Part shown: positions 17,972 to 26,337 of the stretch, piece after piece | Numbering within the stretch: the first letter of the stretch is position 1 | How the letters are laid out: each line of letters opens with the position of its first letter | DNA from: Pseudomonadota bacterium | GTDB lineage: Bacteria; Bdellovibrionota; Bdellovibrionia; Bdellovibrionales; JACTMU01 | NCBI GenBank assembly: GCA_014584465.1 | Contig: JACTMU010000015.1 | Coordinates: forward strand, 1-64,000 | Reading direction: 5' to 3' | DNA: 64,000 nt | Notes under the pieces: generated by a model | What the model saw: the letters and a program-made list of their open reading frames with translations, nothing else | What the model was told of the DNA's origin: nothing | The model's database searches: none | Position numbers and translations under genes: made by a program

Positions 17972-19636
17972 ATGTCGTTTGACTATGACAAAATCCAATC
18001 AAAAGATGATGGGGCCAACTGGTCTTCTTATAGCGATCTCTTCATGATGCTCTCCCTCGTCTTTATACTTCTTTACGTTGTCGCAAACCTTCGCAGTGGT
18101 ACTTTCAGTGTTCAAAAGAACGCTGAGTACCAAAGTCTCACAAAGCAAGTTGAAGATCTCAAGCAACAGCTTGAAGTCTACAACACACTCAAACAGGACT
18201 ATCTCAACCGCGGCGCAACCCAACAAGAAAAGGAGCTCTACTCAGAACTGATGGGAAAACTGGATCTCCTCAAAGAGGAGGCCAAGGATGAGAAGGATGC
18301 TCTCAGAAAGCAAGCAGAGGAAAATGAAAAGAAAGAGAATGCACTGAACAAATACCAACAGATGATTCGAAACCTCATCAATTCCAACATGATCGCCCAA
18401 AACCGCATCAAGCGAAGAGAAGAGATCATTCAAAAGAAGGAAGACATCATCACTCAAAAATATAAAGAGGTTGAAAATCTAGAACGCGTCGTTGCGGAGA
18501 AAAAGAGAGAGGTCACGAAGGGCGAAAAGGAAATTGCACGTGTGACAGAAAAACTTGATGAGAAGATCAATCAACTCAATAATGCCTTCAAGCAGCAAAA
18601 GATCTCCAAGAAGAAACTGGAGGAGAAGATACAGGCCATTAAATTTCAAAGCCAAGAGGAGATCGATCGCCTCAAAGAATCCAACACTCAAATCACCACA
18701 GAGCTCTCATCCGCCAATCAACAGCTTGTGAGATCCAAAAGCGAACTTAATGAGGTCAACACCAAGCTCTCAGAAAAAGAGGAAAAGCTAGGTGAATTGG
18801 TTGCCAAACTTGAAGGCAGTGCTCAGGCTCACCGAGAAGCGCTCGAGAAAGAAAAGGCGAGGTTTCGCGCTCAAGCTGATCAGGAAAGAAAGGCGTTTGA
18901 TGAGGCCCTCAATAAGGAGCGTCTTTCGGGCGCACAACGCGCTCAAAGGGAAGCCGAGTTCCAAGCACAGGCTAAGGAGCGTTCAAAGGCGCTCGAAGGA
19001 AAGATTGCAGATTTAGAGAACCAAGTTCGAACCTCCGACGGCGAACTTGCTAAAGCTCGATCGCAAATGAATGCTCGAAAAGAAATTGCAAAACGCATCG
19101 GAAGAAACTTTAAAGCTGCTGGAATTGATGCCGAGGTCGATCCAAACACTGGAGAAGTGACTCTATCATTTGGTCAATACTACTTCGATACGGACCGGCA
19201 TGATCTCAAACCAGAAATGAAAGAGAAGATCAATCAACTTGTGCCCATTTACGCTCGAAGTCTCTTTGAAGACAAAAAAGTCGAAAAATTGATCTCTTCA
19301 ATCGAAATCATTGGATTTGCTTCCCCCACCTACCAGGGAAAGATCGTCGATCCTCAAAGCTTGGAATCGACGGACCGTTCCGCTGTGAATTACAATCTCG
19401 ATCTCAGTTATCGAAGAGGCAAAGCCGTTTTTAACCATATTTTTGACCCCAGTGTTCTAAAGTTTCGGTATCAAAAAGAGCTATGGCCTCTCGTTAAAGT
19501 GACCGGAAGAAGCTTTCTTGCCGAAGCAAAAAAAGAGAGGACCGTCTCTTCCTCAATGACTCAAAGGGAATTCTGCCAAAAGTATGACTGCTATAAAGCA
19601 CAAAAAGTTCTCATCAAGTTCAATCTTAAGGATTAA
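17972..19636 (+). CDS. MotB/OmpA-type stator protein with long coiled coil
   Basis: 554 residues. One transmembrane helix (about 23-41) is preceded by NWSSYSDLF, matching the MotB pattern in which Asp22 would carry the proton. Residues about 45-385 are continuous charged coiled coil (QQLEVYNTLKQD, EKLGELVAKLEG). Residues about 400-554 form an OmpA/MotB-like peptidoglycan-binding domain (VTLSFGQYYFDTDRHDLK, IEIIGFASP, LDLSYRRGKAV). Flagellar MotB and TolR/ExbD lack so long a coil. GAGGAG precedes the ATG. It is first of three tightly spaced genes; the next encodes a proton-channel partner. The proposed role, transmitting channel-generated torque or force to the cell wall, is inference. Confidence 0.8.
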   Translation: MSFDYDKIQSKDDGANWSSYSDLFMMLSLVFILLYVVANLRSGTFSVQKNAEYQSLTKQVEDLKQQLEVYNTLKQDYLNRGATQQEKELYSELMGKLDLLKEEAKDEKDALRKQAEENEKKENALNKYQQMIRNLINSNMIAQNRIKRREEIIQKKEDIITQKYKEVENLERVVAEKKREVTKGEKEIARVTEKLDEKINQLNNAFKQQKISKKKLEEKIQAIKFQSQEEIDRLKESNTQITTELSSANQQLVRSKSELNEVNTKLSEKEEKLGELVAKLEGSAQAHREALEKEKARFRAQADQERKAFDEALNKERLSGAQRAQREAEFQAQAKERSKALEGKIADLENQVRTSDGELAKARSQMNARKEIAKRIGRNFKAAGIDAEVDPNTGEVTLSFGQYYFDTDRHDLKPEMKEKINQLVPIYARSLFEDKKVEKLISSIEIIGFASPTYQGKIVDPQSLESTDRSAVNYNLDLSYRRGKAVFNHIFDPSVLKFRYQKELWPLVKVTGRSFLAEAKKERTVSSSMTQREFCQKYDCYKAQKVLIKFNLKD

Positions 19637-19648
19637 GGAGAAGGTGCA

Positions 19649-20605
19649 ATGTTTTCTCAGGATTTTATCAGCGCGTTAGTAAGAGGCCTCGTCCACTATG
19701 GATCTGAGGTGCTTTTCCCAATCATGATTGCCTCCTTCTTTATGGGGGTGGTCATGCGTTCCTTGATCTACTACACCATTTGGCGAGAGATGTTCTTTGC
19801 CAAAGAATTTGATAAGAGAGTGAACACCTTTCTTGAAACGGTAACACGCGATATGAGACTCTCCTTTTATCTCATTTCCAAGAAGCTCTTGGAAAAGACC
19901 TTTTATGAACTCTTCGTGGTCAGGGCCATCATGAAAAGGCGCAATCCTGATGTCATCATGACCATGAGTGATCGTATATTCCTGACCAAACAGGGAGCTG
20001 CGTGGATTGTTCATGATCTTCTCAAACAGATCAGACATCTGAAACATGATCGAGAGTCCAAGATGCTTCAGATCACAAAGTCCACGCTTCAAAACAATCC
20101 TTGTTTCAATAGAGTTTTTGGAGTCATTCCTGCATCCATGTTTAATGATTTGGTCAACATTCTTCCAGGTATACTCATTGTTGGCGGCATCTTTGGAACC
20201 TTTCTTGGAATTATGTCTGCACTCCCAGAGCTCGGCCAAATGGACCTATCCAACATCGAAGAGACCAAAATGGTCATGGATCGCTTTCTTGAAAACACCT
20301 CTTTTGCCATGTCTACCTCTCTTGTTGGGATCCTGCTTTCGGTCACTTTAAGCATCTTCAATTCAATGTTCTCACCAGAAAAACTTTTTGTTCGAATTGT
20401 GGACCGTCTTGAAAGTGCCCTTGAAAAAATCTGGAGCCGTAGTGATCACAACGACCTTCCTCGAAATCTCTCGGAGTTTGATGAACATCGAGATCCACTT
20501 GAGGCTCTAGCAGAAGAGGCCCTCCATCAAGAGCTTGGCACTCACTCCCCTTCCACAAACAAGAGAAAGGATGGGCCACCTGAACAATCACGAGATGCTT
20601 CGTAA
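19649..20605 (+). CDS. MotA/TolQ/ExbB-family proton channel subunit
   Basis: 318 residues. Three hydrophobic segments are visible: about 20-45 (VLFPIMIASFFMGVVM), 165-190 (ILPGILIVGGIFGTFLGIM) and 218-240 (STSLVGILLSVTLSIF). A loop of about 120 residues lies between the first two, so the topology is TolQ/ExbB-like rather than four-helix MotA. The GIFGTFLGI block is the family's channel signature. A charged tail of about 75 residues follows. AAGGAG precedes the ATG, 12 bases after the preceding stop. It would form a pentameric channel around two copies of the MotB-like protein. ZorA is a possible relative, but the other Zorya proteins are absent. Confidence 0.8.
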   Translation: MFSQDFISALVRGLVHYGSEVLFPIMIASFFMGVVMRSLIYYTIWREMFFAKEFDKRVNTFLETVTRDMRLSFYLISKKLLEKTFYELFVVRAIMKRRNPDVIMTMSDRIFLTKQGAAWIVHDLLKQIRHLKHDRESKMLQITKSTLQNNPCFNRVFGVIPASMFNDLVNILPGILIVGGIFGTFLGIMSALPELGQMDLSNIEETKMVMDRFLENTSFAMSTSLVGILLSVTLSIFNSMFSPEKLFVRIVDRLESALEKIWSRSDHNDLPRNLSEFDEHRDPLEALAEEALHQELGTHSPSTNKRKDGPPEQSRDAS

Positions 20606-20614
20606 AAGGGGTCT

Positions 20615-23416
20615 ATGGGCGCATCACGTAACGTACTCTTTCGAGTTGAGGTTTCAAATGAGAAGGAAACTCACGTTCATTTCATTGAAAAAGACTCCTT
20701 TACCATAGGACGGGGCCGAAACATCGATCTGTCCATCGACTGGAAAGGGATCAGTAGAGAGCATCTCGTTGTCACCTCCAATGTAAGAGACATTTTCATA
20801 CGCGATCTCAACTCAGCCTTCGGAACATTTGTCAGTGAACAAAAGATCTCTCATGGAGACCAACACTACCCCATGGGCCACCCTATCAAGTTAGGAAGCT
20901 GCCCTGACGTCATTCGAATCTATCTCTTTAAACAGGCCCTCTCAAGAGAAGATGAGGCCAATGAGATCATTCAGAATGCGGCCAAACAGGCTGACGAGAT
21001 CAAGAGAAACTCTCTTAAGGAGGCTCAAACCCTTCGTGAAGAGACTTTAAGAAATGTCCAGATCGCTGCATCGGATCTAAAAAGGAAGGCTGAAAATGAG
21101 GCTCGCCATGTTCTTGAGGTCTCTCGAGATCGTGCCCAGGAGATCATTTCTGGTGCCGACCAACGTGGGCATGAACTTCTACAGGAGGCAGAAAGAAAGA
21201 ATGTTCTCGCCCGTGAACAAACGGAGAAACAGTGCACTCATCTCCTTGAAGAGGCAAGAAAGAGTGTTCTTGCTCTGAGAAACAGTGGTGAAAAAGAGGT
21301 TGCCGCACTCATCAGCCAAACTCATCAGCAACAGTTTGAGACAAAGAAACGCATTGAATCTGCTGCACAAAAGGCATTTGATCAAGTCTTAGAAAAATCC
21401 AAATTGCTCTTTGAACAGCGCCAAAACGAAGCCTCTAAGATTGTCAAAGAAGCCCATGAAGCAGCTGTTCACATCAAGGCTCAAGGACAGAAGGATGCGC
21501 AGTCGCTTCTTCTAGAAGCAAGCAATTCTGTTGCCGAGATTAAGAAAAAGGCTGATTCAGAGGCTCTCTCAATCATCGACCAAGCCCACGTCAAAGGTGC
21601 CGAGATTCTTAAGCAGCGAGAAATCGAAGCTCAGCTGCTCCTTTCAAAGGCACAACAAAGCTGCGAAGATCTAATTCGAAAGACGGAGATCCATCGGACC
21701 GAGATGCTCGACAAAGAGCGAGAAAATCTTGAAGCTCTTCGTAGAGAAGAAGAGAAGAGGATCGCTTCGATCACGAACGCAGCTGGTGCCAAGGCCCATG
21801 AGATCGTCTCCAACGCCCAAAAGTCTGCTTCAGATGTACGCGATTCCGTAAGAGTCGAGGTTGAGGAAATATTGAGAAAAGCGGATCAAAAGGGACTTGC
21901 CGTCGTTGCGAAAGCTCAAGAAAAGGCTAAAGGGATCGTTCAAGACTCCTACCGAGACGCCGAACAGGTTCGAATCGAAAACCTCAAAGAGTGTGAGAAA
22001 GAGCGTGAAAAGATTTTTCAATTCGAGAAGGAATGTCAAAATCGCATAGACATTGCCAATCAAGAAAGATCCTTGATTGAAGAGGAGATCGAATCTCTCA
22101 AGAAAGAGAGGGATCAACAACAGAGCTACATAGGTAAGATCAACAATGAGATTGACGATTGGAAACGAAAAAGAGATGAGGTTCAAGTCCTCTATGAAAA
22201 GAGTCAGATTGAATACAATGAGAGACAAGAGGATCTTGATATTGAAATTCAAAGCCAAAGTCTAAGACTTAAAGAGATTGAATCAACACATCAAACTCTG
22301 GTCGAACAGGCCGAGGTAGCTCGAAGAGATATCTCTGAGGCTGCAATGAAAAGAACCGTTGTGGAGGAAAAACTGCGAGAGGCTCAAGACTATGCAGAAA
22401 AGATCATGGATCGAGCCAATGAAAGAAAATCTTTGACGGAAAGAGACGTAGATCTCATTCTTGAAAAGAAAAAGCAACTTGAAGTCCAACTGGAAAATCT
22501 CGCCAAAGAGATTGAATCCACAGCTCAGAAGGCCAAGAATGAACTTGAATCTGAACTTGCCACTCGGCGCTATCAAGCCATGGCTGAAATCGAGGATCAA
22601 GAACTTGCAGTCAGCAATGAAGTCAAGCGTCAACTTGAAGACGGTATCGAAGAGATTTCAAGACATTTGACCTCTGCAGTGAAGGCCCACATAGAAGATA
22701 TGCTGAGTGACCCGAATCATCTGAAATCCATGGATTCCATTGCAAAAAGGATTGATGTTATTGTGAAAAAAGTTCTCACTAAAGAGTATGTCCCTGGTGA
22801 GGATGAGGTCAAAACTCTTATGGGTTACGATCGGGAACGAACCAAGCGCATCCGAAAGAAGTGGAAGCGAGCCGCTTCTTATGCCGCCGTACCGTTGCTT
22901 CTGGTTGCTCTGCATTGGATCTTTCCTGGATTCTACTCGATGCTGTTTCGATCTTCTGATTCTGAGAAGAGTGCACGATCGATTTATATGGATGACATCA
23001 AGAAATCTCATGAAAAAGTATTCTTTGTGCCAAAGAAAGATGAATCCTACAGAGACAACTACACAGAAAATATTCTCTATACAAATCATTTTGTTGAAAC
23101 CTGGGAAAACAAAGACCAATGGATTCCAAAACTCAACGAGTTCTTTGTTGAAGAACTTAAGATTGGTGAGAATGTAATCGTAAAGTTCATTGCCGGAGAA
23201 AACGAACTCGTCCAATCTCTTCTAACCATGAGCAAAGAGGTCACAGTCAAAAATCAGGTTCGTGACATTGCCAAAATGCAAGAATTTGAGAATGAATCCT
23301 TATCCTCACTGGAAAATCTTGTTGGAGGACCAGAAAATTTTCAAAAGTACCTCGAGTTCAAAAAGAGATACTATCTTGATTCCAAAGAAGAATTTCGAAG
23401 CCCCGCTCAACAGTGA
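20615..23416 (+). CDS. Giant FHA-domain / coiled-coil / transmembrane protein
   Basis: 933 residues. An N-terminal FHA domain (about 25-95) keeps the phosphothreonine-reading residues: Gly32-Arg33, Ser47-Arg48-x-His50 and Asn66 with Gly70-Thr71. Residues about 105-735 are almost unbroken charged coiled coil with Ala-rich repeats (ATP-synthase-b/DivIVA-like look: IVKEAHEAAVHIKAQG, AEIKKKADSEA). One transmembrane helix lies at about 752-772 (YAAVPLLLVALHWIFPGFY), leaving about 160 C-terminal residues, probably periplasmic. It begins ten bases after the channel gene, with AAAGGGG as ribosome-binding site, so it is the third component of that operon. It may link phospho-signalling to the channel. 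No whole-length relative is recognised. Confidence 0.75.
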   Translation: MGASRNVLFRVEVSNEKETHVHFIEKDSFTIGRGRNIDLSIDWKGISREHLVVTSNVRDIFIRDLNSAFGTFVSEQKISHGDQHYPMGHPIKLGSCPDVIRIYLFKQALSREDEANEIIQNAAKQADEIKRNSLKEAQTLREETLRNVQIAASDLKRKAENEARHVLEVSRDRAQEIISGADQRGHELLQEAERKNVLAREQTEKQCTHLLEEARKSVLALRNSGEKEVAALISQTHQQQFETKKRIESAAQKAFDQVLEKSKLLFEQRQNEASKIVKEAHEAAVHIKAQGQKDAQSLLLEASNSVAEIKKKADSEALSIIDQAHVKGAEILKQREIEAQLLLSKAQQSCEDLIRKTEIHRTEMLDKERENLEALRREEEKRIASITNAAGAKAHEIVSNAQKSASDVRDSVRVEVEEILRKADQKGLAVVAKAQEKAKGIVQDSYRDAEQVRIENLKECEKEREKIFQFEKECQNRIDIANQERSLIEEEIESLKKERDQQQSYIGKINNEIDDWKRKRDEVQVLYEKSQIEYNERQEDLDIEIQSQSLRLKEIESTHQTLVEQAEVARRDISEAAMKRTVVEEKLREAQDYAEKIMDRANERKSLTERDVDLILEKKKQLEVQLENLAKEIESTAQKAKNELESELATRRYQAMAEIEDQELAVSNEVKRQLEDGIEEISRHLTSAVKAHIEDMLSDPNHLKSMDSIAKRIDVIVKKVLTKEYVPGEDEVKTLMGYDRERTKRIRKKWKRAASYAAVPLLLVALHWIFPGFYSMLFRSSDSEKSARSIYMDDIKKSHEKVFFVPKKDESYRDNYTENILYTNHFVETWENKDQWIPKLNEFFVEELKIGENVIVKFIAGENELVQSLLTMSKEVTVKNQVRDIAKMQEFENESLSSLENLVGGPENFQKYLEFKKRYYLDSKEEFRSPAQQ

Positions 23417-24002: not shown

Positions 24003-24956
24003 TCAAATTGGATGAGTGGCTGTACCAGATTCAAAGATATGGCTATGCTCTGGTGAGGCCCCAAACTGCACCTCGAGCCTCAATCCTTCTGAAAGAAGGG
24101 TGTCTCCTCCACAAAAACGCAGTCCATTTGCTTGTGCCCACTCCGCGACCGAACTCTTTGTTTCGGGGGTGGTTAAAATCAAAAGCACATCTGCACCCAA
24201 AGCACCACAGCCCTTGGCCCCTAAAACCCCGTTCACCCTCTTCACTTTCTCAATCATCTCTCGTGAGAAGGGGTCTACAAGTTGGTGTTTTGCCAAAAGA
24301 GATCCATAGGCTTCAACCCAAAAAACAAACTTCTTGGCATCCTTCTCGACCACGGCTCTCTCCACACTGTCTAGAATCTCTTTAAGTTCGTCTCCGGGGA
24401 ACTCTTTTAAGGTTTCAAGATGCTTGTGAGTCACCACTTTGCGATTCGTATGAACCAGCACAAAACCAAGATCAGAAAATGGCCAATGGGTCCAGACTCT
24501 TTGCGGCTCTCCAGTCCCCGTAAGGGTCAAGTAGCCATTGAACTGACTGACCAGATCACTTCCACTGGGAGTCCAACCCTGTCCGTCCCAACTCACCGAC
24601 AGAAATTCTTTGACCATTTCCGCGCAACCGGAGTTGGATCGACCAAAGCCCCCTTCTAAGAGAGATTTCAGAGCATACACAAGCACAAACTGCGCGCTCG
24701 AAGCCCCAAAGCCCCCGGCCCCATGCCACGGATCATAAAACTCAATACGCCAATGGGAAAAGAGATCACTGCGAGAACGCAAAAGTTTCCCGCCTGGACT
24801 CCATGAATGAATGCCCTCACAAGATCCTTCTCGATCGGAACTTACCTTTAAGACAAATCTCGGTTCGGTAGAAGCTAGGAGAGCTTTTCCTCCCAGAAGG
24901 GCTAGGTACTCGCCTACAATAAAGGTTTTACTGGGTACCGAGAGTTGAATCTCCAT
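24003..24956 (-). CDS. GHMP kinase, probably of the mevalonate pathway
   Basis: 317 residues. Motif 1 is PSKTFIVGEYLALLGG, motif 2 the ATP loop GGFGASSAQFVLVYAL, motif 3 LGAKGCGALGADVLLI. All three fit the GHMP fold. The GEY in motif 1 leans toward phosphomevalonate kinase and the short length toward mevalonate kinase; sequence alone does not settle it. The neighbouring HMG-CoA reductase gene, 27 bases upstream in the same direction, supports a role in isoprenoid synthesis. No other mevalonate kinase or the diphosphomevalonate decarboxylase lies in the window. Confidence 0.78.
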   Translation of the reverse strand: MEIQLSVPSKTFIVGEYLALLGGKALLASTEPRFVLKVSSDREGSCEGIHSWSPGGKLLRSRSDLFSHWRIEFYDPWHGAGGFGASSAQFVLVYALKSLLEGGFGRSNSGCAEMVKEFLSVSWDGQGWTPSGSDLVSQFNGYLTLTGTGEPQRVWTHWPFSDLGFVLVHTNRKVVTHKHLETLKEFPGDELKEILDSVERAVVEKDAKKFVFWVEAYGSLLAKHQLVDPFSREMIEKVKRVNGVLGAKGCGALGADVLLILTTPETKSSVAEWAQANGLRFCGGDTLLSEGLRLEVQFGASPEHSHIFESGTATHPI

Positions 24957-24983
24957 AACTCGCCTTTCCTTCTCACCTTGAGT

Positions 24984-26318
24984 TTAGGTCCTCAATGGTT
25001 CTCTAAGCGCCTCTTGCCGATTCATTCGAAGATCTTTGAGAACTTCAATCGCATTGGTCAAAGAGATTCTCTTGGTCATCTGCAAGATCTCCTCAAGCTT
25101 CCTCTGCATGATGGGAAGTTCTTGCTCATTGGCCCCTGCCCCCAACATCAAATTCTTAATGTGAAGCTTCATATGACCTTCAATGATCCCGACCGAAGTA
25201 AGGGCGCGCAAAGCACCCAAGTTTTGAACCAGTCCCATAGAAGCAACGATTCTTGACAGCTGTTCTGCCGAGGAGATCTTCATCATTCGAAGAGACATCT
25301 TGGCAGCCGGATGAAGATTGGTCACTCCTCCCACTATCCCCACAATGATCGGAGCTTCCATTTCACCAACAAGTGTTCCGTCTGAATGTTTCCATCGGGT
25401 GATCGATCTGTACTGTCCCGAACGACATGCGTGAGCATGAACTCCAGCCTCAACGGCACGCCAATCATTCCCCGTTGCGATGAGTATGGGATCCATTCCA
25501 TTTAAGACCCCTTTGTTGTTCGTCGCTGCTCGATAAGGATCGAAGTAGGCAAACTCCGAAGCCTCTTGAATCTTCTCACCCACTTCGGCATCCACATCAA
25601 ATATCTCAACTTTTGCTCGAGTCAACCTTGAGTCTACCCAGTTGGACAGAATGCACATTGTAACTCGTTCACCCGTCAATTCTTCGATTTTCGGTTTCAA
25701 GAATTCACAAGTCTGATTGACAACGTTTGCCCCCATGGCATCACACGTGTCCACAAAGATATGAATCACCATCATATCACTGCCCCGACTCGTGGGTACT
25801 CTGCGCACCTGAAGATCCCGAACTCCACCACCTCGTTGAACCAATCCTGCTGCAGGATGCGAATTCGCCCAACCGATTAGAGAACTCTTCTCCTCCAAGA
25901 GAACTTTTTCAGAAGTGTCAAAGTTGCCAGCCTTCGCGATCTGAATCTGACCGATGACGGTGCTACCAACCATCTCCGTCGCGATTCGGCCACACTGGCG
26001 AATCCATTTGGCCGTCTTACTGGCAGCAGCAATGATGGAGGTCTCTTCGACCGCCATCGGAATCGTATAGTCACAACCATCGACCCGCATGTTGGTCACA
26101 ACACCCATGGGCATTTGGAAGTAGCCAATCACATTTTCAATAAAGTGCTCGGCAAGTGCAAAGTTCTTAACGCCACCACCTGACAAAAACTCTACATCAT
26201 CAGGTTTTAGAGCTCCAATTTCAACGAGCTTTGCAAGACGCTCCTCGCGGGTGAGCTTAGAAAAACCCGCAAGTGCCTCATTTGTAAGATTTTTCCCCAT
26301 TTTTTGAGCCGCCCCCAT
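24984..26318 (-). CDS. mvaA: Hydroxymethylglutaryl-CoA reductase (class II-like)
   Basis: About 444 residues. The enzyme reduces HMG-CoA to mevalonate. Family motifs: VEETSIIAAAS (catalytic Glu), DAMGANVVN, ATNNKGVLNG (Lys), GNDWRAVEAG (Asp), GVTNLHPAA and IIEGHMKLH (His). There are no membrane helices, as in bacterial class II enzymes. The ATG at 26318 lacks a clear ribosome-binding site; ATG 26297 is an alternative. It is followed by the GHMP kinase and preceded within 20 bases by rplT, so transcription may continue from the ribosomal genes. Confidence 0.93.
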   Translation of the reverse strand: MGAAQKMGKNLTNEALAGFSKLTREERLAKLVEIGALKPDDVEFLSGGGVKNFALAEHFIENVIGYFQMPMGVVTNMRVDGCDYTIPMAVEETSIIAAASKTAKWIRQCGRIATEMVGSTVIGQIQIAKAGNFDTSEKVLLEEKSSLIGWANSHPAAGLVQRGGGVRDLQVRRVPTSRGSDMMVIHIFVDTCDAMGANVVNQTCEFLKPKIEELTGERVTMCILSNWVDSRLTRAKVEIFDVDAEVGEKIQEASEFAYFDPYRAATNNKGVLNGMDPILIATGNDWRAVEAGVHAHACRSGQYRSITRWKHSDGTLVGEMEAPIIVGIVGGVTNLHPAAKMSLRMMKISSAEQLSRIVASMGLVQNLGALRALTSVGIIEGHMKLHIKNLMLGAGANEQELPIMQRKLEEILQMTKRISLTNAIEVLKDLRMNRQEALREPLRT

Positions 26319-26337
26319 CAAACGGAAGTTGGCAAAA

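What the first reader, a model, noticed from the sequence alone, without database searches (positions are those of the whole stretch)
17972..23416. Three-gene stator operon: MotB/OmpA coiled-coil protein, TolQ-like channel and giant FHA coiled-coil membrane protein
Three genes with gaps of 12 and 9 bases combine a peptidoglycan-binding stator arm, a proton-channel subunit and a phosphothreonine-reading FHA protein with about 630 residues of coiled coil. The proton-site Asp22, the channel glycine block and the FHA Arg/Ser/His residues are all intact. Flagellar, Tol, Exb, Agl/Glt and Zorya sets each share one or two parts but not this trio as I know them. Coils on both the MotB-like and FHA proteins could form a long lever. 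A phospho-controlled, proton-driven motor at the envelope (motility, division or defence) is inference.
Basis: partly seen in the sequence, partly recalled or inferred. Interest (0 to 1): 0.8.

Follow-up and report, generated by a model that had tools for sequence, protein, structure and literature searches.

The report
Bdellovibrio-group membrane motor with FHA subunit
Three neighbouring genes, kept together across most of the phylum of Bdellovibrio-type (often predatory) bacteria, appear to encode an undescribed ion-driven motor that grips the cell wall and carries a long cytoplasmic arm reading phosphorylation signals; what it does for the cell is not yet known.

Summary
P1 (17972-19636), P2 (19649-20605) and P3 (20615-23416) are real, tightly spaced genes. 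P1/P2 are a ZorB/ZorA-like ion-driven pair: channel Asp22 (P1) and Thr184/Ser224 (P2) are invariant in 28 homologues. P3 is FHA, a ~630-residue coil, one transmembrane helix and a conserved all-helical ~140-residue periplasmic domain with no Pfam or PDB match. P2 and P3 are co-present or co-absent in 137 of 144 class genomes. It is not the flagellar stator: near-complete genomes without FlhA keep it. It is not Zorya: no ZorC/D/E neighbour and no ZorA tail. Two corrections: the coils lie on opposite sides of the inner membrane, so they cannot form one lever; and the FHA NG-motif Asn is Phe here, while Halobacteriovorax-type relatives lost the FHA Arg/Ser/His. In a sister clade a cyclic-nucleotide-binding protein takes P3's place, suggesting interchangeable input modules. 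Shown: architecture, synteny, conservation. Inferred: ion flow, 5:2 assembly, phospho-gating. The cellular role is open. No paper on it was found in the library searched.

The parts
17972..19636 (+). P1, 554 aa: ZorB/MotB-like arm protein
   Evidence: PADLOC ZorB1 PDLC00609 E 8.5e-30, all 28 homologues match it; no Pfam domain over cut-off
18029..18103 (+). P1 transmembrane helix (residues 20-44) with ion-site Asp22 (codon 18035-18037)
   Evidence: hydropathy 22-40; D22 and W17 invariant in 28 homologues; D22 aligns with ZorB D26 of 8qyd
18104..19117 (+). P1 periplasmic coil (45-382), with a confident turn at 208-212 (18593-18607) suggesting a helical hairpin
   Evidence: AF2 helices 84-207, 213-315, 320-382, pLDDT about 90 around the turn; YscO hairpin match prob 0.99, TM(target) 0.73, but E 0.52
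19130..19627 (+). P1 OmpA/ZorB-like peptidoglycan-binding-type domain (387-552)
   Evidence: AF2 alpha/beta domain; PADLOC ZorB; Pfam OmpA in 10 of 28 homologues at E<=0.01; N475, L478, S479, R482 invariant
19649..20605 (+). P2, 318 aa: ZorA/ExbB/MotA-superfamily channel subunit without the ZorA cytoplasmic tail
   Evidence: Pfam MotA_ExbB 16.5 bits, below cut-off 22.9
20123..20359 (+). P2 TM2 and TM3 region with Thr184 (20198-20200) and Ser224 (20318-20320)
   Evidence: both invariant in 28 homologues; align with ZorA T147 and S184 of 8qyh
20615..23416 (+). P3, 933 aa: FHA - long coil - TM - periplasmic domain
   Evidence: same architecture in nearly all homologues
20684..20899 (+). P3 FHA domain (residues about 24-95), cytoplasmic
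   Evidence: PF00498 8.3e-12, 45.8 bits against cut-off 20.7; G32 R33 S47 H50 present, NG-motif Asn replaced by F69
20951..22024 (+). P3 proximal stalk (113-470), 11-residue (hendecad) coil
   Evidence: spectral peak 3.67-3.68, power 3.0 and 2.35 against shuffle 95% of 1.2; 62 of 78 homologues, 0 shuffles
22025..22834 (+). P3 distal stalk (471-740), heptad-like coil
   Evidence: spectral peak 3.52, power 1.74 against shuffle 95% of 1.19
22871..22945 (+). P3 single transmembrane helix (about 753-777), N-side positively charged, so N-terminus in
   Evidence: hydropathy; TM 152-202 residues from the C-terminus in nearly all homologues, with net positive charge before it in most; AF2 helix
22973..23395 (+). 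P3 periplasmic all-helical domain (787-927), no known family
   Evidence: AF2 pLDDT about 98 over most of it; no PDB fold match E<=0.001; no consistent Pfam family

Best explanation
The trio encodes one inner-membrane machine. P2 (probably five copies) forms the ion channel around the N-terminal helices of P1 (probably two copies), as in ZorAB and MotAB; ion flow past P1 Asp22 and the P2 Thr184/Ser224 ring turns or shifts P2 relative to P1, which is anchored to peptidoglycan by its C-terminal domain at the end of a long, partly folded-back periplasmic coil. P3 is the third working subunit: its periplasmic helical domain and TM dock on this complex, and its 630-residue cytoplasmic stalk with an FHA head does the job that the ZorA tail does in Zorya, linking the motor to cytoplasmic partners, in most lineages by reading a phosphothreonine mark. 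It is thus a signal-gated, cell-wall-anchored, ion-driven motor of the ZorAB branch, specific to Bdellovibrionota as far as found. SHOWN: sequence relationship, topology by hydropathy, invariant ion-path residues, three-gene synteny, P2/P3 co-occurrence, FHA match, hendecad stalk, structured periplasmic domain (by model). INFERRED: ion flow, stoichiometry, rotation, docking of P3 on P1/P2, phosphothreonine binding, direction of signalling (input v output), and the cellular process served.
For: ZorB profile hits on all 28 P1 (best 5e-34); ZorA profile hits on 24 of 28 P2 by one model; profile match to solved ZorA 8vvn/8qyh and ZorB 8vvi/8qyd; D22, T184, S224 invariant. Synteny in class and phylum with nothing else conserved nearby. 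In 144 class genomes P2 and P3 both present 80, both absent 57, discordant 7 (Fisher 1.5e-31, not corrected for ancestry); P1 in 84. P3 architecture uniform, with the TM 152-202 residues from the end in nearly all. Where P3 is detached from P1-P2 (G023, G100) it is still retained. Third-slot replacement by a cNMP-binding protein in all five loci read of a sister clade supports a signalling-input slot.
Against: No complex was modelled and no experiment was found. The five genus-g31 genomes keep diverged P1-P2 without P3, so P3 is not indispensable everywhere. FHA pThr residues are degenerate in Halobacteriovorax-type P3 (L114, L136, L144), and the window's own FHA lacks the NG Asn. P2 is below the Pfam cut-off in the window. 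The OmpA 'TD' Asp of the peptidoglycan-binding motif (family knowledge) is replaced by an invariant Ser451, so peptidoglycan binding is plausible but not certain.
Confidence: 0.55

Rival explanations
1. It is a Zorya-like defence or envelope-damage sensor: the P1 arm senses peptidoglycan disturbance (for example phage injection), the channel opens and P3 relays the alarm to effectors encoded elsewhere.
For: Closest named families of P1 and P2 are ZorB and ZorA; ZorAB needs peptidoglycan binding, ion flow and a cytoplasmic tail (PMC11890865), and P3 could stand in for the tail.
Against: No ZorC/ZorD/ZorE or any other conserved neighbour; one copy per genome and broadly conserved through a class and beyond, not patchy island-like; no P2 hit in 72,556 plasmids. 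The own-genome search for EH_Signature (ZorC) found nothing but was uninformative because no control rang.
Confidence: 0.2
2. It powers or controls surface motility or predatory cell-envelope movements, as a counterpart of the Agl-Glt gliding motor, whose gene set also combines a MotA/ExbB-type motor with a bitopic FHA protein.
For: The Myxococcus gliding cluster includes PglI, a bitopic protein with a cytosolic FHA and a periplasmic domain, and AglR contacts the inner-membrane GltG (PMC3169522).
Against: No AglQ/AglS-type ExbD subunit or outer-membrane partner is conserved beside it; it is also absent from B. reynosensis LBG001 (by length 3,582,323). JSS and qaytius belong to one lineage, so their absence is one weak observation.
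Confidence: 0.2
3. P1-P2-P3 form a static or slowly gated tether linking peptidoglycan, inner membrane and cytoplasm (size scaffold or localisation mark), the channel being vestigial.
For: Very long helical proteins on both membrane faces; coil lengths vary widely between species, more like a spacer than a precise gear.
Against: The ion-path residues D22, T184 and S224 are invariant over 36-56% identity, unexpected for a vestigial channel.
Confidence: 0.1

Closest known systems
ZorAB core of Zorya anti-phage systems (PDB 8vvn, 8vvi, 8qyd, 8qyh)
   Same: Closest sequence relatives of P1 and P2; same Asp in the B helix and Thr/Ser in the A ring; OmpA-like C-terminal domain
   Different: P2 ends soon after TM3 (about 300-370 aa, no tail; solved ZorA chains up to 729); P1 carries a ~340-residue coil absent from ZorB (solved chains 246-282 aa); no ZorC/D/E; FHA-coil P3 instead
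MotAB / PomAB flagellar stators
   Same: Same superfamily, single-TM B subunit with Asp and C-terminal OmpA-like domain
   Different: P2 has three hydrophobic segments, not the four of MotA; trio present in flagellum-less (FlhA-negative) genomes and absent from flagellated ones
Agl-Glt gliding machinery of Myxococcus and Bdellovibrio
   Same: MotA/ExbB-type motor plus a bitopic protein with a cytosolic FHA domain
   Different: AglRQS uses ExbD-like AglQ/AglS and many Glt partners; none is conserved beside the trio
TolQR / ExbBD
   Same: Superfamily of P2 (hhalign 1.4e-4, probability 53%, against own-genome TolQ/ExbB-type proteins)
   Different: P1 is far longer than TolR/ExbD and ends in an OmpA/ZorB-like domain; no TolA/TonB-like partner

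Membership tests
Zorya | ZorA-type channel subunit | tested here: met
   ZorA profiles E 1.4e-8, 24 of 28 homologues, solved ZorA 4.8e-8; all below NCBIfam curated cut-offs
Zorya | ZorA cytoplasmic tail | tested here: not met
   P2 is 318 aa and stops about 80 residues after TM3; homologues in A1 about 300-330 aa
Zorya | ZorB-type subunit with TM Asp and OmpA-like domain | tested here: met
   but with a ~340-residue coil that ZorB lacks
Zorya | ZorC/ZorD or ZorE effector genes | tested here: not met
   no conserved neighbour besides P1-P3 in the loci examined; whole-genome absence not established (inconclusive)
MotA/TolQ/ExbB (PF01618) | Score over Pfam cut-off | tested here: not met
   16.5 v 22.9 bits in the window; 8 of 28 homologues at E<=0.01, best 1.1e-5
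Flagellar stator | Occurs with a flagellum | tested here: not met
   G120 and G122 (97% and 99% complete) have the trio but no FlhA; G012 and G045 have FlhA but no trio
FHA domain (PF00498) | Score over Pfam cut-off | tested here: met
   45.8 v 20.7 bits
FHA domain (PF00498) | Full conserved phosphopeptide-site set (Gly-Arg, Ser, His, Asn-Gly) | tested here: not met
   G32, R33, S47, H50 present, Asn replaced by F69 in the window; 70 of 83 P3 match a simple GR..[SA]RxH plus [NFIY]G[TS]-type pattern
Agl-Glt | ExbD-type AglQ/AglS and Glt partners encoded alongside | tested here: not met
   no such genes conserved around the trio
5:2 ion-driven motors | Five channel to two arm subunits, ion-driven movement | not testable with these tools

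The most novel reading that the evidence does not exclude
A phylum-specific class of cell-wall-anchored ion-driven motors whose activity is set by an interchangeable third subunit: phosphopeptide-reading FHA with a giant stalk in most lineages, a cyclic-nucleotide-binding protein in a sister clade, and a response-regulator receiver in one genome. It would be a motor gated by intracellular signalling rather than by assembly into a larger machine.
Probability: 0.35. Interest if true: 0.85.

Novelty: new variant of a known kind. Interest (0 to 1): 0.64.

Why it matters
Ion-driven motors of this superfamily power flagella, gliding, Ton/Tol functions and Zorya defence; each new branch has shown a new use. 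This one is kept through much of Bdellovibrionota, including the genetically tractable predator B. bacteriovorus, yet no study of it was found in the library searched. It supplies a defined three-gene target whose ion-site mutant, FHA mutant and deletions are straightforward, and its third-slot swap offers a natural test of how intracellular signals gate a membrane motor.

Tried and rejected
Flagellar stator: rejected by flagellum-less carriers. Zorya membership: rejected on missing tail and effector genes, though P1/P2 are kin of ZorAB. Mobile or defence-island gene: rejected, broadly conserved single copy and no plasmid P2. Both coils forming one lever: rejected on topology. Spread outside the phylum: 'Deltaproteobacteria' L186 appears to be the same genome as G282, which is in the window's phylum (matching contig number and coordinates); 'Thioalkalivibrio' L148 and 'Actinomycetota' L204 look like binning errors (they match Bdellovibrionota loci of the same studies). 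HD100 gene names: placed only near Bd1160-Bd1165 by counting back from a YkuD-type gene taken to be Bd1176; Bd1167 'crescentin-like', down-regulated on predation (PMC2797640), is probably a different gene, and papers naming Bd1159-Bd1165 gave nothing on Bdellovibrio. Foldseek of P1 returned mainly coiled coils. PF15611 search in the own genome uninformative.

Full report
WHAT IS THERE. Three same-strand genes with gaps of 12 and 9 bases, each with a purine-rich Shine-Dalgarno-like sequence. They stand alone: upstream is a divergent sugar-binding protein/ABC transporter set, downstream a convergent small gene. P1 has one TM (22-40) with Asp22, a helical coil without proline and a C-terminal alpha/beta domain; P2 has three hydrophobic segments; P3 has an FHA domain (45.8 bits, cut-off 20.7), a long coil, one TM and a C-terminal domain.

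KINSHIP. General families barely see P1 and P2: MotA_ExbB scores 16.5 bits against a cut-off of 22.9 and MotB_plug is at E 0.12. Zorya models see both: ZorB PDLC00609 8.5e-30 for P1, ZorA 1.4e-8 for P2, ZorA subfamily NF033915 4.2e-9. Over 28 homologues each, all P1 hit ZorB and 24 of 28 P2 hit one ZorA model. Profile searches of the PDB give ZorA 8vvn 4.8e-8 and 8qyh 7.4e-7, ZorB 8vvi 3.8e-7 and 8qyd 2.7e-6. In those alignments P2 Thr184 and Ser224 fall on ZorA T147 and S184, and P1 Asp22 on ZorB D26; all three are invariant across the 28 sequences. The published ZorAB structures place exactly such an Asp against a Ser/Thr ring, in a 5:2 complex (PMC11890865). The P1 C-terminal domain keeps the N..LS..R signature of OmpA-type domains (N475, L478, S479, R482 invariant), but has Ser451 where OmpA domains usually have an Asp (family knowledge).

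SYNTENY AND CO-OCCURRENCE. P2 relatives occur in 85 of 144 genomes of the class, nearly always one copy. In 40 regions around them P1 is adjacent in almost all and P3 in most; no other gene family is conserved there. The missing P3 cases are mainly contig ends or moved P3: in G023 it lies about 0.9 Mb away, in G100 on another contig. Across the phylum the same order holds, as in the named loci, which include Bdellovibrio, Bacteriovorax, Halobacteriovorax and Oligoflexia. P3's C-terminal domain is in 82 and P1's in 84 of the 144. P2 and P3: both 80, P2 only 5 (all genus g31), P3 only 2, neither 57 (Fisher 1.5e-31, which ignores shared ancestry). A genome of exactly 3,782,950 bases, the chromosome length of B. 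bacteriovorus HD100 (3.783 Mb in the table of PMC11656739; exact figure from my own knowledge), carries the trio at 1107724-1112616. Genomes of 2,657,893, 3,348,710 and 3,582,323 bases, which fit P. exovorus JSS, Ca. B. qaytius and B. reynosensis LBG001 in that table, lack it. The first two are the epibiotic predators of that study, but they are one lineage and LBG001 is not among them, so this is only a lead.

NOT A FLAGELLAR PART. Five trio carriers have no FlhA hit, two of them 97% and 99% complete (G120, G122); many genomes with FlhA lack the trio.

P3. Of 83 distinct P3 sequences, 70 fit a simple FHA core pattern, and in nearly all the TM lies 152-202 residues from the C-terminus, with positive charge on its N-terminal side in most. 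FHA and coil should therefore be cytoplasmic and the C-terminal domain periplasmic (positive-inside rule). The coil is not uniform: residues 113-470 have an 11-residue repeat (peaks at 3.67-3.68, power 3.0 and 2.35 against a shuffle 95% of 1.2) and 471-740 a heptad-like one. Hendecad stretches are a family feature (62 of 78, none of the shuffles); such coils are known from rotary-ATPase stalks (own knowledge; NCBIfam AhaH at E 0.002). AF2 on 51 sequences gives a confident all-helical periplasmic domain (mean pLDDT 88, about 98 over the core) with no PDB fold match at E<=0.001 and no consistent Pfam family. The window's FHA keeps G32, R33, S47 and H50, but the NG motif reads FG (F69). P3 of L114, L136 and L144 has lost R/S/H, so phosphothreonine reading is probably common but not universal.

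P1 SHAPE. AF2 (mean pLDDT 72, a modest model) gives helices 20-81, 84-207, 213-315, 320-382 and the C-terminal domain, with the turn at 208-212 predicted at about 90. Foldseek finds the YscO hairpin with probability 0.99 and target TM-score 0.73, but at E 0.52. So part of the arm probably folds back; P1's coil is periplasmic and P3's cytoplasmic, and they cannot be one lever.

THIRD-SLOT SWAP. Diverged P1/P2 pairs (P2 E about 1e-42 to 1e-44 to the profile) in L124, L125, L126, L128 and L216 are followed, after 0-9 bases, by a ~150-residue protein; the two tested score 2e-18 and 2e-21 for cNMP_binding, and the other three are recognisably the same by sequence. On the P2 tree these form a clade with 100/100 support on a long branch. 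In L213 the third gene is a response-regulator receiver by its sequence. In the genus g31 genomes nothing comparable follows.

MECHANISM. The best reading is an ion-driven, wall-anchored motor of the ZorAB branch with P3 as third subunit. The sequence, synteny and residue evidence is solid; ion flow, stoichiometry, docking of P3, phospho-gating and the direction of the signal are inferred. Zorya-like defence and a role in motility or predation remain open rivals.

NOVELTY. Full-text searches found no description of this trio; the recent MotAB evolution study treats ZorAB as a remote homologue left out of its trees and, in the passages read, mentions Bdellovibrio only for AglRS (PMC12505986). 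The library lacks most subscription journals, and supplementary tables could not be read. I call it a new variant of a known kind.

Noticed in passing
L124:8863-9327, L125:9079-9519, L126:9774-10256, L128:8397-8855, L216:10197-10658: Sister clade of P1/P2 pairs is followed within 0-9 bases by a ~150-aa cyclic-nucleotide-binding protein instead of P3; P1 there is 653-1036 aa.
   Followed up: partly
L213:3463-4002: A P1-P2 pair followed by a receiver-domain (response regulator) gene in the third slot, one genome only.
   Followed up: no
L240:6900-8528, L241:4403-6037, L242:6725-8170, L243:5886-7475, L245:7914-11402: FHA proteins with the P3-type C-terminal domain lie beside a heptosyltransferase-like gene (and a PAP2-like gene close by), away from any P1/P2; in G116 and G119 they are short second copies, in G117 and G118 (no P2 found) and G100 the only P3.
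   Followed up: partly
L122:5486-7573: In G204 the gene divergent from P1 encodes a 695-aa protein with ankyrin repeats and an N-terminus that looks FHA-like by eye (no FHA hit).
   Followed up: no
window 24003-26321 (-): HMG-CoA reductase (PF00368, 6e-93) next to an ORF without a Pfam hit that carries a GHMP-kinase-like glycine motif by eye: perhaps a mevalonate-pathway pair.
   Followed up: no
L110 (G177) in the P2 tree: P2 of a genome from another family (f18) groups with Bdellovibrio P2 at 100/96, suggesting transfer within the phylum.
   Followed up: no
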